Source: Vulcanimicrobiota bacterium (GTDB lineage Bacteria; Vulcanimicrobiota; Xenobia; Xenobiales; JADMJV01). Taken from it: a stretch of DNA of 64,000 nt. Both the position numbers and the translations under genes were made by a program. Below, one piece after another: positions 4,089 to 43,399 of this stretch (positions within the stretch are counted from its first letter, which is position 1; every line of letters begins with the position of its first letter). A model generated the notes under the pieces. It searched no databases. It saw only the letters and a list, made by a program, of their open reading frames with translations, and was not told the origin of the DNA. The DNA lies in assembly GCA_019637395.1 (NCBI GenBank), contig JAHBVR010000024.1, forward strand, positions 62,001 through 126,000. The letters are read 5' to 3'.

Positions 4089-4535
4089 CTAGCGAGCGAT
4101 GCGGAATTCCTCGACGTAGTTCAGGCTGGGATCGGTGTGGTTGACAGAAACCGTGCGGGCTACGATTTCAGCTCCCCCGAAAGAGGCTTCCCGCTTGGTG
4201 ATGCCATCGGGGTGGAATTGGGTTTCGATGAAAGTTTCAAAGGTGGGCCGCTCGCTGCTGTTAACGAACAGGCCATCGACGCGATGCAGGCTGCCGGTCT
4301 GCGGGCAGCCGCTATACTCGGCCGTGCGGCTCCAGGGCACCATCAGGCAGTGGCCGGGACCTTGCAAGGAAATTTTACCGTCGCCATCGGCATCCTGGCT
4401 TTTGACCGAGTGGAATACATCGATCTCGCGATGGGCTTCGTGGCTGGCGTAGTCCGCCTGGCTGCGTTTGGCCTGGGCGGCGTTGGGATGAGAATAAACC
4501 TGGGCAAGCTTGCCCGCGACCTGGCTGCTGATCAT
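4089..4535 (-). CDS. Small protein with one EF-hand-type calcium loop
   Basis: A 148-aa protein of unknown family. The clearest element is SQDADGDGKISLQ about residues 44-56, a canonical DxDxDGxI calcium-binding loop. No signal peptide or membrane span is evident. The C-terminal half (FETFIETQFHPDGITKRE) looks like a beta-rich domain. ATG 4535 follows an AGAGAGG sequence about 12 bases upstream. It is the first gene of a minus-strand pair with the frameshifted gene 13 bases downstream. EF-hand loops recur in this window (38538-39029, 53131-54090). Confidence 0.6.
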   Translation of the reverse strand: MISSQVAGKLAQVYSHPNAAQAKRSQADYASHEAHREIDVFHSVKSQDADGDGKISLQGPGHCLMVPWSRTAEYSGCPQTGSLHRVDGLFVNSSERPTFETFIETQFHPDGITKREASFGGAEIVARTVSVNHTDPSLNYVEEFRIAR

Positions 4536-4859
4536 GGCGTTGAAGGGACCTCTCTGTGTGTGGTCCTAGAGTAACGCCCGGGTCTGAAAGATGCCTGAAC
4601 GTCCCTGTATCCATGCGGGTGTAAGGTGGCCTGCTCATGGCTGCATCCGCGTAAGCCAGCGCATAGTAGCGGTCCTTCTCGGATGTATAGCCGAACTGGC
4701 CCTTTCGCCGTCCAAAACCAGTGCCTGCTGCACCATTGGCCATTGCTGGCAGAGATAGCCCGACGAACGGAGAAATTGGACGCAATCTGGTAACGCTGGC
4801 AACAAATTTGTGATTTTCGAACCGGCGTTGCGAGTAGCCCTTCGAGCTATGCTGGAGCC
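4536..4859. other. Divergent intergenic region without a clear gene
   Basis: This 324-base gap separates divergent genes (EF-hand protein on minus, lipase-like on plus). Reading frames cross it on both strands but show no start with a Shine-Dalgarno and no recognisable motif. It must hold the promoters of both neighbours. A TATGCT hexamer at about 4847 would lie only a few bases from the plus-strand ATG; no matching -35 box is visible at normal spacing. Confidence 0.4.
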
Positions 4860-11422: not shown

Positions 11423-12244
11423 GTGACCGAACAAGTGGAAATTCAGGGCATCAAGTTGAGAGTGGCGCAGCCCGACGTGCTCAACATGCAATGGGTGGGC
11501 CAGCGCGAGCTGATGATGCAGCTACTGGCCGCCTGGTCGATTCTGGACCCTCGGGATGTTCCGCTTAATCCGCGCCTGCTGGGTAAGCCGGGGGTGGGCA
11601 AGACCACGCTGGCCTACGCGGCCGCCGTGCAGTTAGGCCGGCCCTGTTACCTGTTTCAGGCCACCATGGATACACGTCCGGAGGACCTGATCATCGCCCC
11701 GGTGGTCGGCCCCGACCAGCAGATACAGTATGTGGCCAGCGCCGTGGTCTCGGCCATGCTGGCCGGCGGCGTGGTCATTCTCGACGAGGGCAACCGCATG
11801 AGCGAGAAGGCCTGGGCCTCGCTGGCGCCGCTGCTGGACACGCGCCGCTATGTAGAATCGGTTATCGCCGGCGTGAAGATTCAGGCGCACCCGGAGTTCC
11901 GCTTTGTAGCCACTATGAATGAGGATTCCTCTACCTTCGAACTTCCCGAGTATATTCACTCGCGCCTGCAACCCCAGATCGTGGTGGAGTTTCCCGATCT
12001 GGCCGAAGAACTCAATATTCTGCGCTCCAATCTGCCCCACATCAAGGACGATGTGCTGATTTACGTCGGCAAATTTTTGCAGGCCGCCCACGCCGCCAAT
12101 GAGCGTTATTCGGTTCGCGACGGCATCAACGTGGCCCGCTACGCGGTAAAGTACGCCCGGGCGGCCGGCTGTGAAGAGAAGGAGGCCCTGCGCAAAGCCA
12201 TCATCCAGGTTTTGGGAAAAGAAGCTGAACGCTATGCCTCATGA
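11423..12244 (+). CDS. MoxR-family AAA+ ATPase
   Basis: A 273-aa AAA+ protein. GTG 11423 has GGAG at 7-base spacing; the open frame upstream is a shadow of the metallopeptidase. Walker A GKPGVGKT is at residues 54-61, Walker B GVVILDE at 116-122 and sensor 1 ATMN at 163-166. The MoxR-like insertion between strand 2 and Walker B (RPEDLIIAPVVGPDQ) is present. MoxR ATPases act as chaperones that remodel or insert cofactors into partner proteins, commonly with VWA-domain partners. Here the coupled partner is the TraB-like protein, whose ATG lies 11 bases inside this gene; no VWA gene follows. Confidence 0.9.
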   Translation: MTEQVEIQGIKLRVAQPDVLNMQWVGQRELMMQLLAAWSILDPRDVPLNPRLLGKPGVGKTTLAYAAAVQLGRPCYLFQATMDTRPEDLIIAPVVGPDQQIQYVASAVVSAMLAGGVVILDEGNRMSEKAWASLAPLLDTRRYVESVIAGVKIQAHPEFRFVATMNEDSSTFELPEYIHSRLQPQIVVEFPDLAEELNILRSNLPHIKDDVLIYVGKFLQAAHAANERYSVRDGINVARYAVKYARAAGCEEKEALRKAIIQVLGKEAERYAS

Positions 12245-17048: not shown

Positions 17049-20000
17049 ATGAGCGACACAGAACAGAAGATTCAAGAGGCCATCGAGCTTCATCGGGCAG
17101 ACAAGACGGCGGACGGCCTGGCTATCCTGGATGAGCTGATTCCTACCCTGGAAGACCAGCGCGTGGCGCTTTTTGTGCGCGGCTGTCTGCGCGTGGGCAA
17201 CGAGGACGCTCAGAACGCCATCGTGGATTGGGAGCAGGCTCTGGATGGAGATCTGCAGTTGGCCTCGGCTTTGCATTCGCAGCACACCGCCCTGGTCGAC
17301 AAAGCACTTTACGACTTTCACTTCGAGACCACGGTGGAAGCCAACGACGCCAATGTTCATAGCGCCTTGGGGCGAGCTTACCGGCTCTTCGGGCGTTTCG
17401 ATGAAGCCATCACCAGTCTGGTACGCTCCACCGAATTATCACGCAGCATGTGGCGCGACGGAGTGGCCGCGGCCGAGTTGCAACTGAAAATGGGCATGGT
17501 CGAACAGGCCCAGGTGCTGGTTACCGGCCTGCTGGAAACGCGCCAGGATAACGGCGAGCTGCATTTCCAGGCGGGCCGTATCTTTCAAATGCAGAACTCG
17601 CTGGCTTTCGCGCTACGCCATCTGGAGCGAGCCGTTCAATTGGAGCCGGAGGATTGGCGCCCACGTCTGTCGCTGGGTGAAATTTACGTGCTACAAGCTC
17701 GTTTCGATCAGGCCGAGCCGCAATTGAGCAAAGCCCTGCAGCTTCAGCCCAGCGCCCGTGCTCACTTGTGCATGGCCGAGTGCGTTAAAGGCTCTTACCG
17801 TTTTGATGAGGCCCTGCAGCATCTGCGCAGCGCGGTGGAATTGGAGCCGCGCAATCTGACGGCTTTGACGGAGCTGGGCTCCCTGGCGCTGCAATTTGGC
17901 GATTTGGAACTGGGACAGGACTGTTTGCGTCGTGCTCTGGAAATCGATCCGAGCCGTGCCGAACTCTATGGCTTGCTGGCCAAAGCGGCTCAGCAGAAAG
18001 GCGATGCCGAAGAGGCCATCAGTTCTTACCGGAAATTGTTGGAGCTCTCGCCCGGCGAGGCTCAGCCCAATCATATCTTGGGCGGCCTGCTCGCCGCCCG
18101 CGGGGAAAATGGCGAGGCGGCCCGTTACCTGGAAAAAGCTCTGGAGTTGATGCGCGAGGACGTGCAGGTGACCTTGGACCTGGCCCGCGTCTACCTGTCC
18201 CTGGGCAAGAATTCCGAAGCCATCAAGTTATTGCGCGATAGCTTCGCGCGCAATCCTCATCACTCCGACACCAAGGCGTTGCTGCAGCAGCTCGACCCCG
18301 CGGCCGTCCCGGTCGACCGCACCCTGACCGTGAGCAGCGGTCCGGTGGAGGAACACAATCCCTGGCTGGATTCGAGTGAACGGGAGCCGGAGCTGGTCAT
18401 CTTCGAAGGTCATATGAAGCAGGGCCGGGCTCTGCTGGCCGAGGGACAGGAGGGCGACGCGCTCAAGTCCTTCCGTGCCGCCCTGACTCTTCGCCCCAAG
18501 GACCGCGACTGTCTGGTGGAAACGGGGCGCCTCTACGCGCGCCGCGGCATGTTGGGATTGGGGGCGGACCTTTTACAGCAGGGCTATGCCCTCAATCCTC
18601 AGGATTTCTCGCTGCTGCCTGAATTGATGGACTGTCTGGTTCGAGCCGATGAAATGGAGCGAGACGAAACGCTGGCGGCGCTGGTGTTGGGATTGCCGGC
18701 GAATCTCAACCGGCAGGGTTTTGTCGAGGCGCTGGCGCCTTTGCGGGGCAGCGTAGCGATGGACGAGCTGACCGACATCGTGGTCCAGGGTTTGCTGTCG
18801 CGCTTTCCCAGCGACACCGAGCTAAGGGCTCGTTGGGAGCAACTGAAGGTGGCTTCTTCGGTGGTCGAGGAACCGGTAGTCGAACCCGGTCCGGACGGCT
18901 TTGAAGAGCCCACCGCCGCCGAGCCTGCCCAGGTGGTCGAACCGGGACCGGATGGATTTGCCGGGCAGGCGGTGGAAACGGGAGGGGGGGCAGAGCTCGC
19001 TCCTCAACCCGCTGCTGTTGCGTTGATGGATGAGCCCGTGCCGCAGGCGACGTTGGAGCCGGTGGCGGTCGACGCGGTCCCGGAACCGGAGCTGCTGGTA
19101 GAATCTGTGCCTGACCCCCTGGCTTTCGAGCCCTTGGCGGCGGAGCCTGAGCCTGAGCCTGAGCCGGTGGCGGTGGAGCTTGAGCCGGTGGCGGCCGAGC
19201 CTGAGCCGGTGGCGGCCGAGCCTGAGCCGGTGGCGGCCGAGCCTGAGCCGGTGGCGGTGGAGCCCGAGCCGGTGGCTGTGGAGCTTGAGCCGGTGGCGGT
19301 GGAACCTGAGCCGGTGCCTATGGAACCTGAGCCGGAAGAGCCGGCTGAAGTGGCTATTCCCGAGCCGGAACCGGCGCCTGAACCTGAGTTCGAGCCCGCA
19401 GCTCCGATGCTCCAGGCCACGGTGGCAGTGGTTCCGTCTGAAACTAGACCCTGGGTGGAGGGGGAATTGGTGGAAGTCAGTTCCGTCCACCTGGACGTGT
19501 GGCGCGCTCAGCCTCGCTCACAGGAATCGGGCAGCCCGGCTGAGCTGCTGCGCCAATTCGCCTGGAACCTGTCCGGTCAGGGCCACTACCGGGAAGCCGT
19601 GTTGACTCTCAGCCAGGCCTTGGAGTGGGAACCCACGGTAGGAGCCGCCTGGTTGGAGCAGCTTCTGGGTCAGTGGTGTGACCACCTGGAGCAATCGGGC
19701 CAGCCGGAGGCAGCGCTGCAGGTGTGCCAGAGCAGGGTCGAACTCTTTCCCGATCAACCCGACGCTGCTCGTCGCCTCAAGGAACTCACCCCGGTACCGC
19801 CTCCACCCGTTGAGGAGGAGGTGCCGGTGGAAGATCTGAGCCAGGCTTTGGAAGCGATGCGCCACCATCCGGGTAATGAAGGATTGATCCTCAGGACGCT
19901 GGCGCTTGGAGAGGGCCGTGACGAGGAGTTGCTCAACGTCTTTCGGGTGCTGATTCGCGACCACGCTGACGAGCCGCTGCACTTCCGTAATTTCGCGCGC

Positions 20001-31676: not shown

Positions 31677-33161
31677 ATGAGCAACAATCGCGCCAGTGGA
31701 GTGCTCCTCCACGTGACCAGTCTACCCGGCCGTTACGGGGTAGGCACTCTCAACCGTTCCGCTTACGCCTGGGTGGATTTTTTGGCCGACGCGGGTCAGA
31801 GTATCTGGCAGGTGTTGCCTCTGGGTCCCACTTCCTACGGCGACAGCCCGTATCAGAGTCTCTCCACTTATGCTGGGAACCCCTACCTGATCGGCCTGGA
31901 AGGATTGCTTGAGGAGGGTCTGCTGGAGCAGAAGGACCTGGAAGATGCTCCGGAACTGCCGGAAGGCAAGGTTGATTACTGCGCGCTCTATGAATGGAAG
32001 CTGCCGCTGCTGCACAAGATCGCCGAGCGCCACAGCCAGGCTGCTCCAGCCGAGTTCACCCGATGGTGTAAGACGCAGCCCTGGCTGGAGGATTACGCGC
32101 TTTTTCTGGTTCTCAAGAAAGAGCATAACAATCAGGCCTGGAATCAATGGCCCAAGCCAATCCGGCAGCGCCAGGCCAGGGCTCTGCAAGAGGCACGAGA
32201 TTCCCACCAGCAACTGATTTTGCAAGAGAAGTTCATTCAGTGGCTGTTTTTCAAGCAGTGGAAGCAACTACGGGACTACGCCGCCAGGCGCAAGGTGCGG
32301 ATCTTTGGAGATATTCCCATTTTCGTGGCCATGGATAGCTCGGATAGTTGGGCCCACCACCATCTCTTCCAGTTCGACAAGGAACTGCAGCCGCTGGCGG
32401 TAGCCGGCGTCCCCCCCGATTACTTCTCACCCACCGGCCAGTTGTGGGGCAATCCCCTCTACGACTGGAAAGCGCATAAGGACCAGGGCTACAAGTGGTG
32501 GATCGATCGGGTCAAAGCCGCATTCGACATGTATGACATCTTGCGGGTCGACCATTTTCGCGGCTTTGCCGGCTACTGGCGGGTGCCGGCCGATGCCAAG
32601 ACGGCCGAAACCGGTAAGTGGGTCAAGGGACCCGGAGCCGACCTCTTCAGGGCGCTGCACAAGGCTCTGGGTGAGCGCAACATTGTGGCCGAGGACCTGG
32701 GCGACATTACTCCCGACGTCATCGCTCTCCGCGACAAATTCGAGTTTCCGGGGATGAAGATTCTCCAGTTCGCCTACGGCTCCGGCCCCGGGAATCCGTT
32801 CCTGCCTCACAACTTCGAAACCACCCGTTTCGTGGCTTACACCGGTACCCACGACAACGATACGGTGCGCGGTTGGTATGAGAACGGCACCGAATCGGAA
32901 CGGGAATATTGCCGCGAATACTTCGGTAACCCAGAGGAAGCGGTCAGCGCCACCCTGATCCGGGCCACCCTGAAAAGCACCGCTCAATGGGCCATCATTC
33001 CTCTCCAGGATCTGCTGGACCTCGGAACGGAAGCCCGCATGAACTTCCCCGGCCGGGCTCACGACAACTGGCAGTGGCGTTTGAAGCCCAACGAACTCCG
33101 CCAAGAACACCGCGACCAGCTTCTCAAATGGACGCGCATGTACAATCGCCTTCAGGGCTGA
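31677..33161 (+). CDS. malQ: 4-alpha-glucanotransferase (amylomaltase)
   Basis: A 494-aa GH77 enzyme that transfers maltosyl and longer alpha-1,4-glucan chains in maltodextrin/glycogen metabolism. The N-terminus RASGVLLHVTSLPGRYGVGT, then SYGDSPYQSLSTYAGNPYLI, the nucleophile-containing LRVDHFRGFAGYW (Asp in VDHFRG), the acid VAEDLGDITPDV and the stabiliser YTGTHDNDTVRGWY are the family blocks in order. Full length. Start ATG 31677. It is monocistronic; the hairpin array begins just after its stop. Confidence 0.97.
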   Translation: MSNNRASGVLLHVTSLPGRYGVGTLNRSAYAWVDFLADAGQSIWQVLPLGPTSYGDSPYQSLSTYAGNPYLIGLEGLLEEGLLEQKDLEDAPELPEGKVDYCALYEWKLPLLHKIAERHSQAAPAEFTRWCKTQPWLEDYALFLVLKKEHNNQAWNQWPKPIRQRQARALQEARDSHQQLILQEKFIQWLFFKQWKQLRDYAARRKVRIFGDIPIFVAMDSSDSWAHHHLFQFDKELQPLAVAGVPPDYFSPTGQLWGNPLYDWKAHKDQGYKWWIDRVKAAFDMYDILRVDHFRGFAGYWRVPADAKTAETGKWVKGPGADLFRALHKALGERNIVAEDLGDITPDVIALRDKFEFPGMKILQFAYGSGPGNPFLPHNFETTRFVAYTGTHDNDTVRGWYENGTESEREYCREYFGNPEEAVSATLIRATLKSTAQWAIIPLQDLLDLGTEARMNFPGRAHDNWQWRLKPNELRQEHRDQLLKWTRMYNRLQG

Positions 33162-33184: not shown

Positions 33185-34150
33185 CATTGCCACCTGCAAC
33201 CGTCCGCGCGAGCCCCTGGGTTGTCGTTTGTTGCGGGCCAGCGCTCTTCGGTTGTCGTCCGGCGGTGACTAATGTTGTCGGCCACCGGCAACTGCCTGCG
33301 GGAGGCCCTTCGGTTGTCGTCCGGCGGTAACAATGTTGTCGGCCACCGGCAACTGCCTGCGGGAGGCCCTTCGGTTGCCGTCTGGCGGTAACAATGTTGT
33401 CGGCCAGCGGCAACCGCTCGTGCGGGGGCTTCGGTTGCCGTCCGGCGGTAACAATGTTGTGGGCCAGCGGTAACCGCTTGTGCGGGGGCCTTCGGTTGCC
33501 GTCCGGCGGTAACAATGTTGTCGGCCACCGGCAACTGCTTGCGAGAGGCCTTCGGTTGCCGTCCGGCGGTAACAATGTTGCTGGCCAGCGGCAACCGCTC
33601 GTGCGGGGGACTTCGGTTGCCGTCCGGCGGTAACAATGTTGTCGGCCGCCGGCAACCGCCCGCGCGGGACCTTCGGTTACGGTCCGGCGGTAACAATGTT
33701 GTCGGCCACCGGCAACTGCCTGCGAGAGGCCTTCGGTCGTCGTCTGGCGGTAACAATGTTGTCGGCCAGCGGCAACCGCCCGCGCGGGGCCTTCGGTTGC
33801 CGTCCGGCAGTAACTAATGTTGTGGGCCAGCGGTAACCGCTCGCGCGGGGGTCTTCGGTTACGGTCCGGCGGTAACAATGTTGCGGGCCAGCGGTAACTG
33901 CCCCGCGCGGGGCCTTCGGTTGCCGTCCGGCGGTAACAATGTTGTCGGCCACCGGCAACCGCTCGTGCGGGGGGCTTCGGTTGCCGTCCGGCGGTAACAA
34001 TGTTGTCGGCCACCGGCAACTGCCTGCGGGAGGGCCCTTCGGTCGTCGTCTGGCGGTAACAATGTTGCGGGCCAGCGGTAACCCCCGCGCCTCCCGCCCC
34101 GTCGGTTGTCGTCTGGCGGTAACAATGTTCCCGGCCACCGGTAACCACCC
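33185..34150 (+). repeat. Array 1: tandem hairpin satellite, 15 units of about 61 bp
   Basis: Fifteen near-identical units share the core GGCGGTAACAATGTT (units centred near 33270, 33330, 33390 ... 34115), preceded by one degraded copy next to malQ. Each unit contains arms GTTGCCG and CGGCAAC flanking the AT-rich core, so the core sits in a hairpin loop. The same CGGCAAC arm can instead pair with the GTTGCCG arm of the next unit around a GC-rich linker such as CCCGCGCGGG. Arm variants (GTTAC/GTAAC, and G-T wobble) largely keep pairing. The array runs to within 5 bases of the msrA stop codon. ORFs across it are repeats of shifted frames and not genes. Confidence 0.95.
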
Positions 34151-34154
34151 GGGC

Positions 34155-34745
34155 CTACTTCTTCAGCAAGTTCGCGTAGAGGTGGCGCATTTTCTCGACT
34201 TTGGGGGCGATGACCACCGAGCAGTAGCCCTGGCGGGGGTTGGCTTTGTAGTAGCCCTGGTGGTAGGTCTCGGCTGAATAGAACTTGCGCAGCGGCACGA
34301 TCTCGGTGACGATGGGATTGGGGTAGTTTTTCTGGGCGGCTTGTCTGGCGGCTTCGGCTTCCGCCTTCTGTTTGGCGCTCTCGTAGAGAATGATGCTGCG
34401 ATATTGTGGGCCGTGGTCGGCGCCTTGCTGATTGGGCGTGGTGGGATCGTGCATGGTGAAGAAGATCTTCATCAACTGGTCGTAAGAGATGACCTTGGGG
34501 TCGAATTCGATCTGCACCACTTCGGCGTGTCCGGTTTGCTTGCCGCAAACCTGTTCGTAAGTCGGGTTGGCTACGTGCCCCCCGGAGTAACCGCTGGTCA
34601 CAGCCGATACGCCCTTGAGATCCTCGAAGACGGCTTCCAGGCACCAGAAGCATCCGCCTCCAAAAGTGGCCCGTTCCGCCAACGCTGGTTGTCCAAGTGC
34701 CATGAGAAATAGTCCTGCTATCCTTGCGAGTTTGGTCAGTTTCAT
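34155..34745 (-). CDS. msrA: Peptide methionine sulfoxide reductase MsrA, exported form
   Basis: A 196-aa enzyme reducing methionine-S-sulfoxide. The catalytic motif GCFWC is at residues 31-35 with Cys32 as nucleophile; SGYSGGHVANPTYEQVCGKQTGH then HAEVVQIEFDP follow, and ETYHQGYY is near the end. An N-terminal signal peptide (KLTKLARIAGLFLMALGQPALA) indicates export, so it repairs periplasmic or secreted proteins. Its stop codon directly abuts hairpin array 1, which therefore lies in its 3' region. Confidence 0.96.
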   Translation of the reverse strand: MKLTKLARIAGLFLMALGQPALAERATFGGGCFWCLEAVFEDLKGVSAVTSGYSGGHVANPTYEQVCGKQTGHAEVVQIEFDPKVISYDQLMKIFFTMHDPTTPNQQGADHGPQYRSIILYESAKQKAEAEAARQAAQKNYPNPIVTEIVPLRKFYSAETYHQGYYKANPRQGYCSVVIAPKVEKMRHLYANLLKK

Positions 34746-39094: not shown

Positions 39095-40390
39095 TTACCC
39101 CTCCGCTTGCACCTTTTCCAGTTGGCTGGCCACGATCTGGTTGGCCATCAGCAAAAGTCCGTAGAGACGAATGCAGTCCGCACCGGACCCGCCGGTCAGG
39201 GGGCTATCGTAAAAACCCCAGATAGCCAGGTTGCCCAGCGTGAACAGGGTCAGCGCGAAGCCACCCATCAGCTTGCGCGGCCAGCCGGCGGAACAAGAAT
39301 ACATGTTGGTCACGGGAATCACCAGGGTGAAGTAGATGATGCAGCCGACCAGTTCCCAGACGCGCCCCTCATAATGGTACAGTCCCCAACTGGCCAGACC
39401 CAGGAAGATCGAGCCGCTGACCAGGTTGCTTTCCATGACTTCGTCAGCGCGCAAGATCTTGCGTCCATATTTGCTGAGGCGCAAAAGCGAGTTGCCGACC
39501 GGTCGCGCCACGAAGCTCAGGTAGGAGAAGATCGACCAGACGAAGAGCAGGCCGCTGATCAGGGGTCGCAGGCCGGGATGGCGTTTGGCCAATTCGCGCA
39601 GGAACTTCTCGGTGAAGTGCTCGGCCACCACCAGCATCCAGCGGATGTTGTTGGGTAAACTGGAAAGCCACAGGAGATAGCGCACGATCAGGCCGTAGAA
39701 CGGATAGCGCATGCGCAAAGCATCCAGGAATCCGTCGCGAGCCAGTTCGTTTTCCGGATCCGCCCTTAGCGCCTGGGTGAAAGCTTCCAGTGCTTCCTCC
39801 CGTTTGCCCTGGCGCAAGGCCGCGTAACCGAGGAAGGAAATCGCATCCGAGTCTTCCGGAGAATCGGCCAGCATCTCCGTGAGCAGGCCGCGAGCTTCTT
39901 CGGCCTTGCCGCTGTTGATCAGCGCCCAGCAGCGAGCGTGCAGGCAGTTTTCATCGCGTGGATCGAAGGTGAGTCCCTGGGCGGTGAGATCGAGTGCTTC
40001 GGCCCACTTCTTCTGGTCGCACGAGATAAAGGCGGACAATCCCAGGATGTCGGAGCGGCCGGGGTCGAGGCGTAAAGCCTCGCGCACCGAGGTCCGCGCC
40101 TCGGCCACCATGCGCCGCATGCGATAGATGGTGGCCAGCGAGGTGTGGGCGAAGACGCACTCCGGATCGAGTTTGATGGCCTGCTGGGCTACTTCGGTGG
40201 CGGCCTTTTTGCGACCCTGGCGAGCCAGGCACAGTCCCAGGTAGGCCATGCAGATGGCGTCGTCGGGAAACTCTTTCATGTGCTCGGCGAATTGATGCTG
40301 AGCTTCCTTGTAGTGCTGGGCCTGATAGAGCATCTGGCCGCGTCGGAAGGCGGAGGACTCGCCTCCCAGATCACCCTCGACTTCTCTCAT
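39095..40390 (-). CDS. TPR protein with C-terminal membrane segments
   Basis: A 431-aa protein. ATG 40390 overlaps the AAA ATPase stop as ATGA and has GAGG upstream; the longer frame is a shadow. Residues 15-210 form about six TPR hairpins (for example AYLGLCLARQGRKKAATEVA, DAISFLGYAALRQGKREEAL). From about 220 to 430 there are several hydrophobic spans (LIVRYLLWLSSL, GLLFVWSIFSYLSFVA, IIYFTLVIPV, LTLFTLGNLAIW). A cytosolic TPR module anchored in the inner membrane next to a Vps4-like AAA protein suggests a membrane-remodelling or protein-extraction pair. Confidence 0.75.
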   Translation of the reverse strand: MREVEGDLGGESSAFRRGQMLYQAQHYKEAQHQFAEHMKEFPDDAICMAYLGLCLARQGRKKAATEVAQQAIKLDPECVFAHTSLATIYRMRRMVAEARTSVREALRLDPGRSDILGLSAFISCDQKKWAEALDLTAQGLTFDPRDENCLHARCWALINSGKAEEARGLLTEMLADSPEDSDAISFLGYAALRQGKREEALEAFTQALRADPENELARDGFLDALRMRYPFYGLIVRYLLWLSSLPNNIRWMLVVAEHFTEKFLRELAKRHPGLRPLISGLLFVWSIFSYLSFVARPVGNSLLRLSKYGRKILRADEVMESNLVSGSIFLGLASWGLYHYEGRVWELVGCIIYFTLVIPVTNMYSCSAGWPRKLMGGFALTLFTLGNLAIWGFYDSPLTGGSGADCIRLYGLLLMANQIVASQLEKVQAEG

Positions 40391-41607
40391 CGAATCCTCG
40401 CCTTCTCCAGGTACTGGTCCAGGTCGTCGTACATGCCATCCTGGTTGGCAAAATTCACGTAGTTTTTGGCGCGCCGCAGCCACTCCATGGTGGAGGGCTT
40501 GCTCTCCTTGAGGGCGGCCTGGAAGTCGTGGTTGGTAATGTCGCGCAGGTTGCCCGATTTGAGCGCTTCCGAGAGAGCACGCTCGGTGGCCAGTTCGACC
40601 AGGTGAGCCAGGTCGGCGCCCGAGAAATGGTCAGTTTTGGCGGCGATGTCGGCCAGGCGCACGCTGCTGTCGATTTTGCGCCCTTTGGTGTGGATACTCA
40701 GGATCTGTTCGCGGGCCGGTTTATCGGGCGGCGGCACGAATAGCACTTTGTCGAAGCGGCCCGGGCGGCGCAAGGCCGAGTCCACGTTCCAGGGCATGTT
40801 GGTGGCGCCCAATACCATGACTTTCTGGTTATCCGCCACCATGCCGTCCATTTCAATCAGGAACTGCGAGACCATGGAGCGGGAATGGTGCGAATGCATG
40901 TCGCTGCGCTTACCGCCCAGGGCATCCACTTCGTCGATGAAGATGACCGAGGGCGCGTGATCGCGGGCCGTTTTGAATAGATTGGAAAGCTGCTTTTCGC
41001 TTTCGCCGATCCACATGCTGAGCACTTCGTTGAGCGACAGCAGGTAGAAGTTAGCGCCGATTTCGCCGGCGGTGGCTCGAGCCAGGTGGGTCTTGCCGCA
41101 GCCGGGCGGTCCGTAAAGCAGCAGGCCGCCGCCGATTTTCTTGCCGTAGGCGGCATAGATCTCGGGCTTTTGCAGCGGATAGAGGATATTGAGGCGAATC
41201 TTCTCTTTGAGCGCCTCCATGCCGCCGATCTCGGCGAAGGTGACGCGCAGCCGATTCTCGTTCTCGTGCTCTTCGCGCTTGTCGTCCTCCAAGCCGCTGA
41301 CCGGCACTTTAGCCACGCCTTCCAGTTCGGTTTCCAACTGCTCGTCGATCAGCTTGCGGTCGCTGGTGATGGCCTCTTTGTAGAGTACCCGGGCGGTTTC
41401 CAGCTCCCCCTGGGAATTAGCCAGGTGGGCGCCGGCCAACTTGGCCAGACCCTTATGCTCGGTCACCCGCAACGGGGTGGCGTGCTCCACCGCTTCCGCG
41501 TAGCGCCGAGCCTTGAGAAGCTGAGTTACGACCTGAACGCGCACACGGTCGTTGTCGGGCTTTTCCTCGAGGGTGGACAGCAGCAGGGAAATTAAATCAT
41601 CACTCAT
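40387..41607 (-). CDS. Classical AAA ATPase (Vps4/katanin-like) with N-terminal helical domain
   Basis: A 406-aa single-AAA protein. Residues 1-95 form a TPR/MIT-like helical domain, then a linker. Walker A GPPGCGKT is at 166-173, pore loop MWIGESEK at 198-205, Walker B VIFIDEVDAL at 221-230, sensor GATN at 267-270 and arginine finger region RRPGRFD at 280-286. The C-terminal helix resembles the Vps4 tail. Eukaryotic relatives disassemble ESCRT or microtubule polymers; the client here is unknown. Its ATG is about 115 bases from hairpin array 2, which precedes it. Confidence 0.9.
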   Translation of the reverse strand: MSDDLISLLLSTLEEKPDNDRVRVQVVTQLLKARRYAEAVEHATPLRVTEHKGLAKLAGAHLANSQGELETARVLYKEAITSDRKLIDEQLETELEGVAKVPVSGLEDDKREEHENENRLRVTFAEIGGMEALKEKIRLNILYPLQKPEIYAAYGKKIGGGLLLYGPPGCGKTHLARATAGEIGANFYLLSLNEVLSMWIGESEKQLSNLFKTARDHAPSVIFIDEVDALGGKRSDMHSHHSRSMVSQFLIEMDGMVADNQKVMVLGATNMPWNVDSALRRPGRFDKVLFVPPPDKPAREQILSIHTKGRKIDSSVRLADIAAKTDHFSGADLAHLVELATERALSEALKSGNLRDITNHDFQAALKESKPSTMEWLRRAKNYVNFANQDGMYDDLDQYLEKARIR

Positions 41608-41721
41608 ATCCCGTGGGGGCTTCCCTCACTGCTCAAAAAGTCCCTTTCCCAGCACAAGCGGAGCGGCTTCGAGATGCCTGTCTAAAAGATTACTGCCGGG
41701 ACTCGAGACGGGGTTTGCCCC

Positions 41722-42635
41722 CGACTTGCCGGCTTGGTGGCAAAAATTATCGCTGGCTGGTAAGTCTCACGGTGGGGGCGGCGACTTGCCGGTCTGGTGG
41801 CAAGAATTACCGCTGGCTGGTAAGTCTCACCGCCGGCTGGCAAGTCTCACCCCGGGGGCGCCGACTTGCCGGCTTGGTGGCAAGAATTACCGCCGGCTGG
41901 TAAGTCTCACCGCGGGGCGGTGACTTGCCGGCTTGGTGGTAAAAATTACCGCTGGCTGGTATGTCTCACCGCGGGGCGGTGACTTGCCGGCTTGGTGGCA
42001 ACAATTACCGCCGGTTGGCAAGTCTCACGGCGGAGGGAGCCCGACTTGTCGGCTTGGTAGTAAAAATTACCACCGGCTGGCAAGTCCCGCGGCGGAGGGA
42101 GCCCGACTTGTCGGCTTGGTGGTAAAAATTACCGCTGGCTGGTATGTCTCACCGCGGGGGCGCCGACTTGCCGGCTTGGTGGCAACAATTGCCGCCGGCT
42201 GGCAAGTCCCGAGGCGGGCGCGCCCACTTGCCGGCTTGGTGGCAACAATTACCGCCGGCTGGTAAGTCTCACGGCGGAGGGAGCCCGACTTGTCGGCTTG
42301 GTGGTAACAATTACCGCCGGCTGGCAAGTCCCGAGGCGGGGAGCCCACTTGCCAGCTTGGTGGCAAAAATTACCGCTGGCTGGTAAGTCTCACGGTGGGG
42401 GCGGCGACTTGCCGGTCTGGTGGCAAGAATTACCGCCGGTTGGCAAGTCTCACGGCGGAGGGAGCCGACTTGCCGGCTTGGTGCAAGAACTACCGCCGGC
42501 TGGTAAGTCCCCGAGGCGGGGGCGCCGACTTGCCGGCTTGGTGGCAAGAATTACTGCCGGCTGGTAAGTCTCACGGCGGAGGGAGCCCGACTTGTCGGCT
42601 TGGTGGCAACAATTACCGCCGGCTGGTAAGTCCCG
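41722..42635 (-). repeat. Array 2: tandem hairpin satellite, 15 units of about 60 bp
   Basis: Fifteen units start GACTTGCCGGC or close variants (41722, 41782, 41862, 41921, 41980, 42042, 42104, 42164, 42224, 42286, 42346, 42406, 42467, 42527, 42588). Each has outer arms GACTTGCC and GGTAAGTC or GGCAAGTC, inner arms GGTGG and CCGCC, and an AT-rich loop such as AAGAATTA. Linkers between units are GC-rich and fall into a few recurring classes. A half-unit duplication lies near 41831. Read on the minus strand the core contains CCGGCGGTAA and TTGTTGCCACC, matching array 1. It lies between the SET-domain gene and the AAA ATPase gene, both on the minus strand. Confidence 0.95.
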
Positions 42636-42699: not shown

Positions 42700-43179
42700 C
42701 TATTCCTGGGAGGAAGAGTCCTGGCTGCCGGGCCAAGCGTAGTTTTCTCGTGATTGCGGCAGGTCGCCCCAATATTCGCGCGCCAGCATGTAGCCGCAGC
42801 AGTTGGGAGCGCCGCAGGCACAGGGGAAGCGTTCGTATTCGCTGAGATCGTAGCCGTAGTTGAAGCTGAGCTCTTCGCCGGCTTGCAGGTCGCGGTCAGC
42901 CACGATCCAGATTTGGCCGCCGCTGAGTTCGACGCGGCAGTTAGGACTGCAACTGTGATTGAGGTAGCGAGCCGTGTTCTCTAGAGCTGCTCCGTCGATG
43001 TCGTGGGCGTAGTCGAGGTGGAAGATGTAATTATTGCCGGCCAGGCGGCGGCGGGCGCTCTCTTCTTTGCTGATGTGCTCGCCGCGATATTGCAGAATGC
43101 GCGTGCCGCCGGGAATCGGTTGCGCGGCGAAGAGTCCTTCCCCGGCCCAGCCAGAAGGCCCGATCCGTACCAGGCTCAA
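42700..43179 (-). CDS. SET-domain protein lysine methyltransferase-like
   Basis: A 159-aa protein that is essentially one SET domain. TTG 43179, overlapping the previous stop as TTGA, gives the natural opening SLVRIGPSGWAGEGLFAAQ. The motifs are AGEGLFAAQ (SET-N), RYLNHSCSPNC at 71-81 and GEELSFNYGY at 101-110; a post-SET zinc cluster CACGAPNCCGY at 120-130 completes the site. These are the S-adenosylmethionine and lysine channel residues of eukaryote-like SET enzymes, also found in some bacteria. The target protein is unknown. It lies downstream of a short coupled gene and upstream of hairpin array 2. Confidence 0.88.
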   Translation of the reverse strand: MSLVRIGPSGWAGEGLFAAQPIPGGTRILQYRGEHISKEESARRRLAGNNYIFHLDYAHDIDGAALENTARYLNHSCSPNCRVELSGGQIWIVADRDLQAGEELSFNYGYDLSEYERFPCACGAPNCCGYMLAREYWGDLPQSRENYAWPGSQDSSSQE

Positions 43180-43301
43180 GAGTCGAACAACTGCATGAAC
43201 TTTTCCACCACCTGCTTCTGGCCGCTCTGGTCGAGAGTATCCGCGTCGGGTTTCGTCGAAGTGCGGGTGAAATAGCGCACTCCATCCCCTTCCATCACCA
43301 T
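43176..43301 (-). CDS. Short protein coupled to the SET gene, possibly frameshifted
   Basis: From ATG 43301, 41 residues read MVMEGDGVRYFTRTSTKPDA... to FMQLFDS and end at the TGA overlapping the SET start. Coding-like sequence continues upstream in the same frame (FKGADEPPFL) to a stop at 43343. An ATG at 43351 (MLSDA...) would join it if one C were added in the run near 43337, giving about 58 residues. I recognise no family. The overlap suggests translational coupling with the SET gene. Confidence 0.5.
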   Translation of the reverse strand: MVMEGDGVRYFTRTSTKPDADTLDQSGQKQVVEKFMQLFDS

Positions 43302-43399
43302 CAGGAATGGAGGTTCGTCGGCGCCTTTGAACGCCGGGCGTCACTAAGCATCCAGGGGGATTCCCAACCGGTGCGGGGGTGATCCTGCTGTCCGAGATT

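What the first reader, a model, noticed from the sequence alone, without database searches (positions are those of the whole stretch)
33185..34150. Fifteen-unit hairpin satellite (array 1) between malQ and msrA
About 61-bp units share a GGCGGTAACAATGTT core inside arms GTTGCCG/CGGCAAC. Each arm can pair either within its own unit or with the neighbouring unit across a GC-rich linker, so the array could switch between two secondary structures. Arm changes largely keep pairing (G-T wobble or GTTAC/GTAAC). There are no unique spacers, so it is not a CRISPR. The last unit ends within 5 bases of the msrA stop, so msrA mRNA would carry it if transcription continues past the stop.
Basis: seen in the sequence. 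Interest (0 to 1): 0.82.

Follow-up and report, generated by a model that had tools for sequence, protein, structure and literature searches.

The report
Clade-specific hairpin satellite between genes
A 15-copy array of a roughly 61-letter palindromic repeat fills the gap between two genes of an uncultured bacterium; it belongs to a whole set of such arrays found only in a small group of species, appears and vanishes between close relatives, and looks like bacterial 'satellite DNA' that spreads at gene ends without any recognisable transposase.

Summary
Window 33246-34151 holds 15 modules (mean spacing 61 bp). It is non-coding and fills the 993 bp between the convergent malQ and msrA stop codons. 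Each ~44-bp module is an imperfect palindrome made of two 19-bp palindromes around AAT. In four relatives (MalQ 72-92% identical) the same gap is ~1-164 bp with no array, so array 1 is private to this genome.

It is not isolated. Covariance models find this family (F1) and a sister family (F2, which includes the window's second array) in three sister species only. Matches lie in arrays; the one stray is weak. An F1 array at one locus is kept in two species while its units were homogenised separately. In one relative seven F2 arrays sit within 100 kb and share units. Arrays favour convergent gene pairs (15 of 27, against 18% of pairs).

Best reading: a palindromic satellite behaving like clustered REP/BIME repeats but not a member. 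It lacks the GTAG/CGTC tag, dispersed single copies and a consistently present RAYT. The two alternative pairings are equally stable, but nothing shows a switch. Unexpected: array periods cluster at about 50, 60.5 and 71 bp, steps of roughly one DNA helical turn.

The parts
33185..33245 (+). degenerate leader / partial unit of array 1
   Evidence: listed as part of a 62% copy; outside the TRF array
33246..34151 (+). array 1: 15 modules, mean spacing 61 bp (family F1)
33372..33415 (+). example F1 module (CGGTTGCCGTCTGGCGGTAACAATGTTGTCGGCCAGCGGCAACC): twin 19-bp palindromes 33374-33392 and 33396-33414 around AAT; together one long hairpin
33416..33432 (+). example GC-rich linker; the adjoining arms can also pair across it (cross-linker pairing)
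31677..33161 (+). malQ (4-alpha-glucanotransferase, PF02446), stop codon 5' of array 1
34155..34745 (-). msrA (peptide methionine sulfoxide reductase, PF01625), stop codon 3-8 bp from the end of array 1
41720..42635 (+). array 2: about 15 modules, mostly 59-62 bp apart (sister family F2)
40387..41607 (-). AAA ATPase gene downstream of array 2
42700..43344 (-). SET-domain gene whose 3' end differs from the G001 orthologue where array 2 begins
41608..41648 (-). sequence matching the original 3' end of the SET gene (GGGACTTTTTGAGCAGTGAGGGAAGCC), left beside the ATPase start: second flank of array 2's insertion site

Best explanation
Array 1 is one copy of a non-coding, clade-restricted palindromic satellite (families F1 and F2). 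Shown: (1) the repeat unit is a conserved ~44-bp imperfect palindrome (two 19-bp palindromes around a 3-bp centre) plus a fast-changing GC-rich linker; (2) arrays are present at some intergenic sites and absent from the same sites in close relatives, mostly just after stop codons and especially between convergent genes; (3) units are homogenised within each array and, in one relative, shared between arrays in the same 100-kb region. Inferred: a short multi-unit piece is copied into a gene-end site, by regional template switching, ectopic recombination or an unidentified recombinase acting on the single-stranded hairpin, then grows and shrinks by slippage and unequal exchange; it is tolerated at 3' ends because it harms nothing there. 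Any effect on the neighbours (blocking read-through, stabilising mRNA 3' ends) would be secondary.
For: Presence/absence: the stop-to-stop gap is 993 bp in the window but ~1, 2, ~33 and ~164 bp in four relatives with the same gene order; the nearest, G002, has MalQ 92% and MsrA 86% identical. Array 2: the SET-ATPase gap is 1092 bp in the window and 18 bp in G001, with the old SET gene end left on the ATPase side. Family: R1 finds 46-49 F1 matches in G000 and 16-19 in G002, in arrays; the only isolated G000 match, C34:1216, is weak (26 bits). R2 finds 94 in G000, at least 150 in G001 (capped) and 37 in G002; none in 16 other relatives, including congeners G003 and G004. Persistence with homogenisation: G000 C15:81712 and G002 C9:2933 are the same locus (both flanking genes 85-87% identical) with different species-specific units. 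Regional spread: seven F2 arrays on G001 contig C4 share 69-80% unit identity between arrays, against 57-67% to other contigs and genomes. Site bias: 15 of 27 arrays are between convergent genes, against 308 of 1729 gene pairs (p ~1e-5); F1+F2 alone 9 of 15 (p 3e-4). The module core is conserved while the linker varies.
Against: No recombinase was found that tracks the arrays: Y1_Tnp is broken in G000 and absent from G001 and G002; RVT_1 is absent from G001. F1 arrays within G000 share only about two thirds identity, so no recent donor of array 1 is visible. The strong conservation of the core and the period classes suggest some recognition or function beyond neutral slippage. Clean target-site duplications were not shown.
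Confidence: 0.6

Rival explanations
1. The arrays are bidirectional transcription barriers: stacked GC-rich hairpins that stop or slow RNA polymerase, or protect mRNA 3' ends, between convergent genes.
For: Convergent-gene bias, arrays often filling the whole stop-to-stop gap (G001 C4:68998-69553, C78:156578-156839). Folds more stable than both kinds of control on both strands. No U-tract terminator is seen inside array 1.
Against: Relatives do without it at the same gene pair. Some arrays sit in tandem or divergent contexts. Orientation relative to neighbours is not fixed. Array length (2 to 15 units) far exceeds what a terminator needs.
Confidence: 0.18
2. The arrays are phased binding sites for a DNA-binding or nucleoid protein: palindromes repeated at about 50, 60.5 or 71 bp so that successive sites keep a constant rotational setting.
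For: 32 intergenic arrays have periods 47-52, 60-62 or 70-72 and none at 53-59 or 63-69; collapsing to family classes still gives p about 0.003 for a 10-11.5 bp step (post hoc). One array, G002:C546, mixes 51-52 and 59-61 bp spacings. Arms are conserved in sequence, not just in pairing.
Against: The family classes were set by hand after seeing the data. Two 55-bp spacings exist and unit length wanders by 1-3 bp. No candidate protein. The F1 and F2 arrays are essentially absent from congeners G003 and G004.
Confidence: 0.12
3. The array is an RNA (or single-strand DNA) element of fixed polarity whose hairpins matter, for example a stabiliser, a decoy, or a switch between within-unit and cross-linker folds.
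For: At paired positions G-T mismatches outnumber A-C on the module + strand (82:4 in F1 twin, 59:8 in F2 long cells; 20:3 and 31:7 as array-level events), the pattern expected if that strand folds. Both registers are equally stable.
Against: Almost no compensatory double changes within F1 or F2 twin/long schemes; the seven double-change pairs of the F1 long hairpin are few and 146 of 500 shuffles reach that number. The events are not independent. Orientation relative to genes is mixed.
Confidence: 0.08
4. Assembly artefact or ordinary replication-slippage noise with no conserved unit.
For: The relatives are mostly genomes of uncultured organisms and several arrays sit at contig ends (C2, C28, G001 C4).
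Against: The 15 units are distinct (84% matches). An F1 array at the same locus is found in a separately assembled species with both flanks, and the modules are shared by three species.
Confidence: 0.02

Closest known systems
REP / BIME repeats (repetitive extragenic palindromes), especially clustered ones such as T. roseum GTAG-23 (PMC3733652, PMC2817692)
   Same: Short palindromes with G-T pairs; regularly spaced clusters; intergenic; biased to convergent and co-directional gene ends, close to stop codons; [quoted passage not shown]
   Different: No GTAG or CGTC tag at the module ends; matches in arrays, essentially no dispersed single copies; all units of an array in one orientation; no intact RAYT in the carriers; ~44-bp palindrome plus a ~17-20-bp linker.
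Intergenic minisatellites / VNTRs (e.g. mycobacterial MIRU; from own knowledge)
   Same: Unit of 50-70 bp, head-to-tail, intergenic, differs between relatives.
   Different: Built on a conserved palindromic core shared by many loci and three species; linkers not conserved; gains of whole arrays rather than only copy-number change at fixed loci.
Cyanobacterial STRR/LTRR tandem repeats (from own knowledge)
   Same: Lineage-specific intergenic tandem repeats in large bacterial genomes.
   Different: Those units are much shorter and not paired palindromes; no sequence comparison was made.
CRISPR arrays and integron attC arrays
   Same: Regular spacing of palindromic repeats.
   Different: No unique spacers, no cassette genes; linkers are near-copies of each other; the outer arms do not fit the attC boxes by eye (consensus from own knowledge).

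Membership tests
REP/BIME | GTAG or CGTC unpaired tag at one end of the palindrome | tested here: not met
   No GTAG within 9 nt of either end in 67 modules; CGTC near the 5' end in 2 of 35 F1 and 0 of 32 F2 modules; definition from PMC3733652
REP/BIME | High copy number, dispersed singletons and doublets | tested here: not met
   In 1.96 Mb of the genome F1 matches are confined to five arrays plus one isolated weak match
REP/BIME | Associated tyrosine transposase (RAYT, Y1_Tnp) | tested here: not met
   PF01797 only as a broken gene in G000, absent from G001 and G002 which carry arrays, present in G004 which has essentially none
REP/BIME | Extragenic, biased to convergent/co-directional gene ends | tested here: met
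   comparison
REP/BIME | Regular spacing with alternating orientation (BIME) | tested here: not met
   Strong F1 matches of an array lie on one strand; reverse-strand matches are weak echoes of the palindrome
CRISPR | Near-identical repeats separated by unique spacers | tested here: not met
   Linkers are variants of each other
Rfam RNA families | Match to a known RNA family at gathering score | tested here: not met
   Only three tRNAs in the window
Integron attC array | Integron integrase and gene cassettes between sites | not tested
   The units are only about 61 bp apart, so no cassette genes can fit; integrase was not searched

The most novel reading that the evidence does not exclude
A bacterial satellitome: several unrelated families of hairpin satellites in one genus-level group that spread regionally to gene ends without a transposase, and whose periods are locked to steps of one DNA helical turn (50, 60.5, 71 bp), implying that a protein reads the arrays on one face of the helix.
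Probability: 0.2. Interest if true: 0.75.

Novelty: new variant of a known kind. Interest (0 to 1): 0.5.

Why it matters
Bacteria are thought to carry little satellite-like DNA, and the known abundant palindromic repeats (REPs) are largely explained by a domesticated transposase. Here is a clade in which palindromic tandem arrays occupy many gene ends, come and go between sister species and spread regionally, yet no intact REP transposase is present in the carriers. The three array-bearing species and their two congeners without these families make the origin, the spreading mechanism and any effect on convergent transcription directly testable by comparison.

Tried and rejected
Coding repeat: rejected, periods of 49, 50 and 61 shift the frame. 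CRISPR: no unique spacers. Known RNA family: no Rfam match. REP driven by RAYT: Y1_Tnp does not track the arrays. Retroelement driver: RVT_1 is absent from G001, which has the most F2 modules. U-tract terminators at array 1: only chance-level matches, none in the array. Two-state switch: equal energies but little covariation. Function tied to a gene class: flanking genes are diverse (MalQ, MsrA, SET, AAA, ArgJ, AhpC/TSA family, DUF885, HTH). Literature searches for such satellites in this phylum found nothing in the held library.

Full report
WHAT IS THERE. Array 1 is real. TRF reports 33246-34151, period 61, 14.8 copies, 84% matches; the core is found 13 times exactly against 0.09 expected, and 15 times with one-base variants, 60-63 bp apart. 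It fills the space between the convergent malQ (stop at 33161) and msrA (stop at 34155) genes, both confirmed by Pfam. The stretch 33185-33245 is a degenerate leader. Spacings that are not multiples of three make it non-coding, although spurious antisense ORFs run through it.

ANATOMY. Each unit has a ~44-bp module and a 17-20-bp GC-rich linker. The module is two 19-bp palindromes (7-bp stem, 5-nt loop) around AAT: GTTGCCG-TCCGG-CGGTAAC-AAT-GTTGTCG-GCCAC-CGGCAAC. Because both palindromes use the same arms, three pairings are possible: two small hairpins (91% of cells paired across F1), one long hairpin (82%), or pairing across the linker (95% in array 1). Windows centred on the module and windows centred on the linker have nearly equal mean energies on both strands. 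Whole-array folding beats dinucleotide shuffles and a control that keeps the tandem repetition, but most single units on the + strand do not stand out from their own shuffles.

A SUPERFAMILY, NOT ONE ARRAY. A covariance model of the module (R1) finds F1 arrays at five places in the genome (C17 = array 1, C15 twice, C11, C18) and in G002; in the 1.96 Mb of G000 read directly the matches are confined to these arrays plus one weak isolated match and a few at chance level. The window's second array (41720-42635) has the same architecture (TTGYCG..CGGTAA-NNN-TTACCG..GGCAA), and model R2 finds this F2 family in G000, G001 and G002 but in none of 16 other relatives searched, two congeners included.

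BIRTH, PERSISTENCE AND SPREAD. At malQ-msrA four relatives with the same gene order have stop-to-stop gaps of about 1, 2, 33 and 164 bp. At array 2 the gap is 18 bp in G001; the window keeps the old SET gene end beside the ATPase start, and similar sequence also lies on the SET side, so the array may be flanked by an imperfect ~30-bp duplication (weak). Another F1 array (G000 C15:81712) is present at the orthologous place in G002, with both flanking genes 85-87% identical, but the units differ by species, which is concerted evolution; the G003 homologue of the right-hand gene has no array nearby. In G001 contig C4 seven F2 arrays within 100 kb share 69-80% unit identity, against 57-67% elsewhere: recent regional spread.

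WHERE ARRAYS SIT. With a simple home-made gene finder, 15 of 27 arrays with two called neighbours lie between convergent genes, against 308 of 1729 gene pairs (p ~1e-5), 9 in tandem and 3 in divergent contexts. Several fill a convergent gap entirely. REPs show the same preference. Flanking gene functions are diverse. In tandem contexts modules are sense or antisense about equally often, by my reading.

TWO UNEXPECTED PATTERNS. Periods of 32 intergenic arrays from several unrelated families fall at 47-52, 60-62 or 70-72 bp and nowhere between; one G002 array mixes 51-52 and 59-61. This fits steps of one helical turn, but the test was made after seeing the data, and two 55-bp spacings exist. Second, at paired positions G-T cells far outnumber A-C cells on the module + strand, as if that strand folds as RNA or single-stranded DNA; in F2 unpaired columns the transition bias runs the other way (p 0.001), in F1 it does not differ. 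Events are shared among related units, so this is suggestive only.

MECHANISM. I favour a palindromic satellite that is copied into gene-end sites and then expands, shrinks and homogenises. The copying agent is unknown: Y1 transposase and reverse transcriptase do not track the arrays. A bidirectional transcription barrier and a phased protein-binding array are the main rivals and could be added effects of the same DNA.

COMPARISON. It works like clustered REP/BIME elements but fails their membership tests (tag, dispersed singletons, RAYT, alternating orientation). The closest described case is the clustered GTAG-23 REP of T. roseum (PMC3733652).

LIMITS. One quarter of the genome was scanned for arrays in general; the R1 and R2 genome scans score at most 150 candidates per genome; some pieces were chosen because they held matches; relatives are mostly uncultured-genome assemblies; there are no expression data.

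Noticed in passing
window 41720-42635: Second satellite array (family F2) upstream of an AAA ATPase gene; in relative G001 the SET-ATPase gap is only 18 bp, and the window's SET gene has a different C-terminus.
   Followed up: yes
L217:6486-6691 (G000 C22) and L204:13488-13663 (G000 C6): A third hairpin satellite family (GTGCGCGAGCTGGCGCAC core, period 50-51).
   Followed up: no
L160:11625-12014 (G000 C11) and L181:9472-9689 (G001 C2): A fourth satellite family (CCCGGTGGAGCC..GGTTAA, period 49-50) shared between two species at different places.
   Followed up: no
L242:17879-18058, L249:1133-1258, L250:15364-15664, L251:3041-3476 and 4343-4537: A fifth satellite family with a GAGGCAAAGCCTC-type palindrome, period 50-52 or 60; three of its arrays lie within 10 kb in G001.
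   Followed up: no
L171:9578-9839, L261:10395-10949 and 11993-12135, L257:15078-15207 (all G001): A sixth satellite family with a CCGCG-TTTTT-CGCGG-type hairpin, period 61-62.
   Followed up: no
L166:17-187 (G000 C2), L225:1-116 (G000 C28), L264:1-568 (G001 C4): Arrays lying at contig ends, suggesting that such arrays break assemblies in this clade.
   Followed up: no
L114:499-854 (G000 C17:499-854): The only Y1 transposase gene matches of the genome, split into two frames with a stop.
   Followed up: partly
window 19155-19335: 21-bp tandem repeat inside a TPR protein gene, coding for a Glu/Pro/Val-rich stretch.
   Followed up: no
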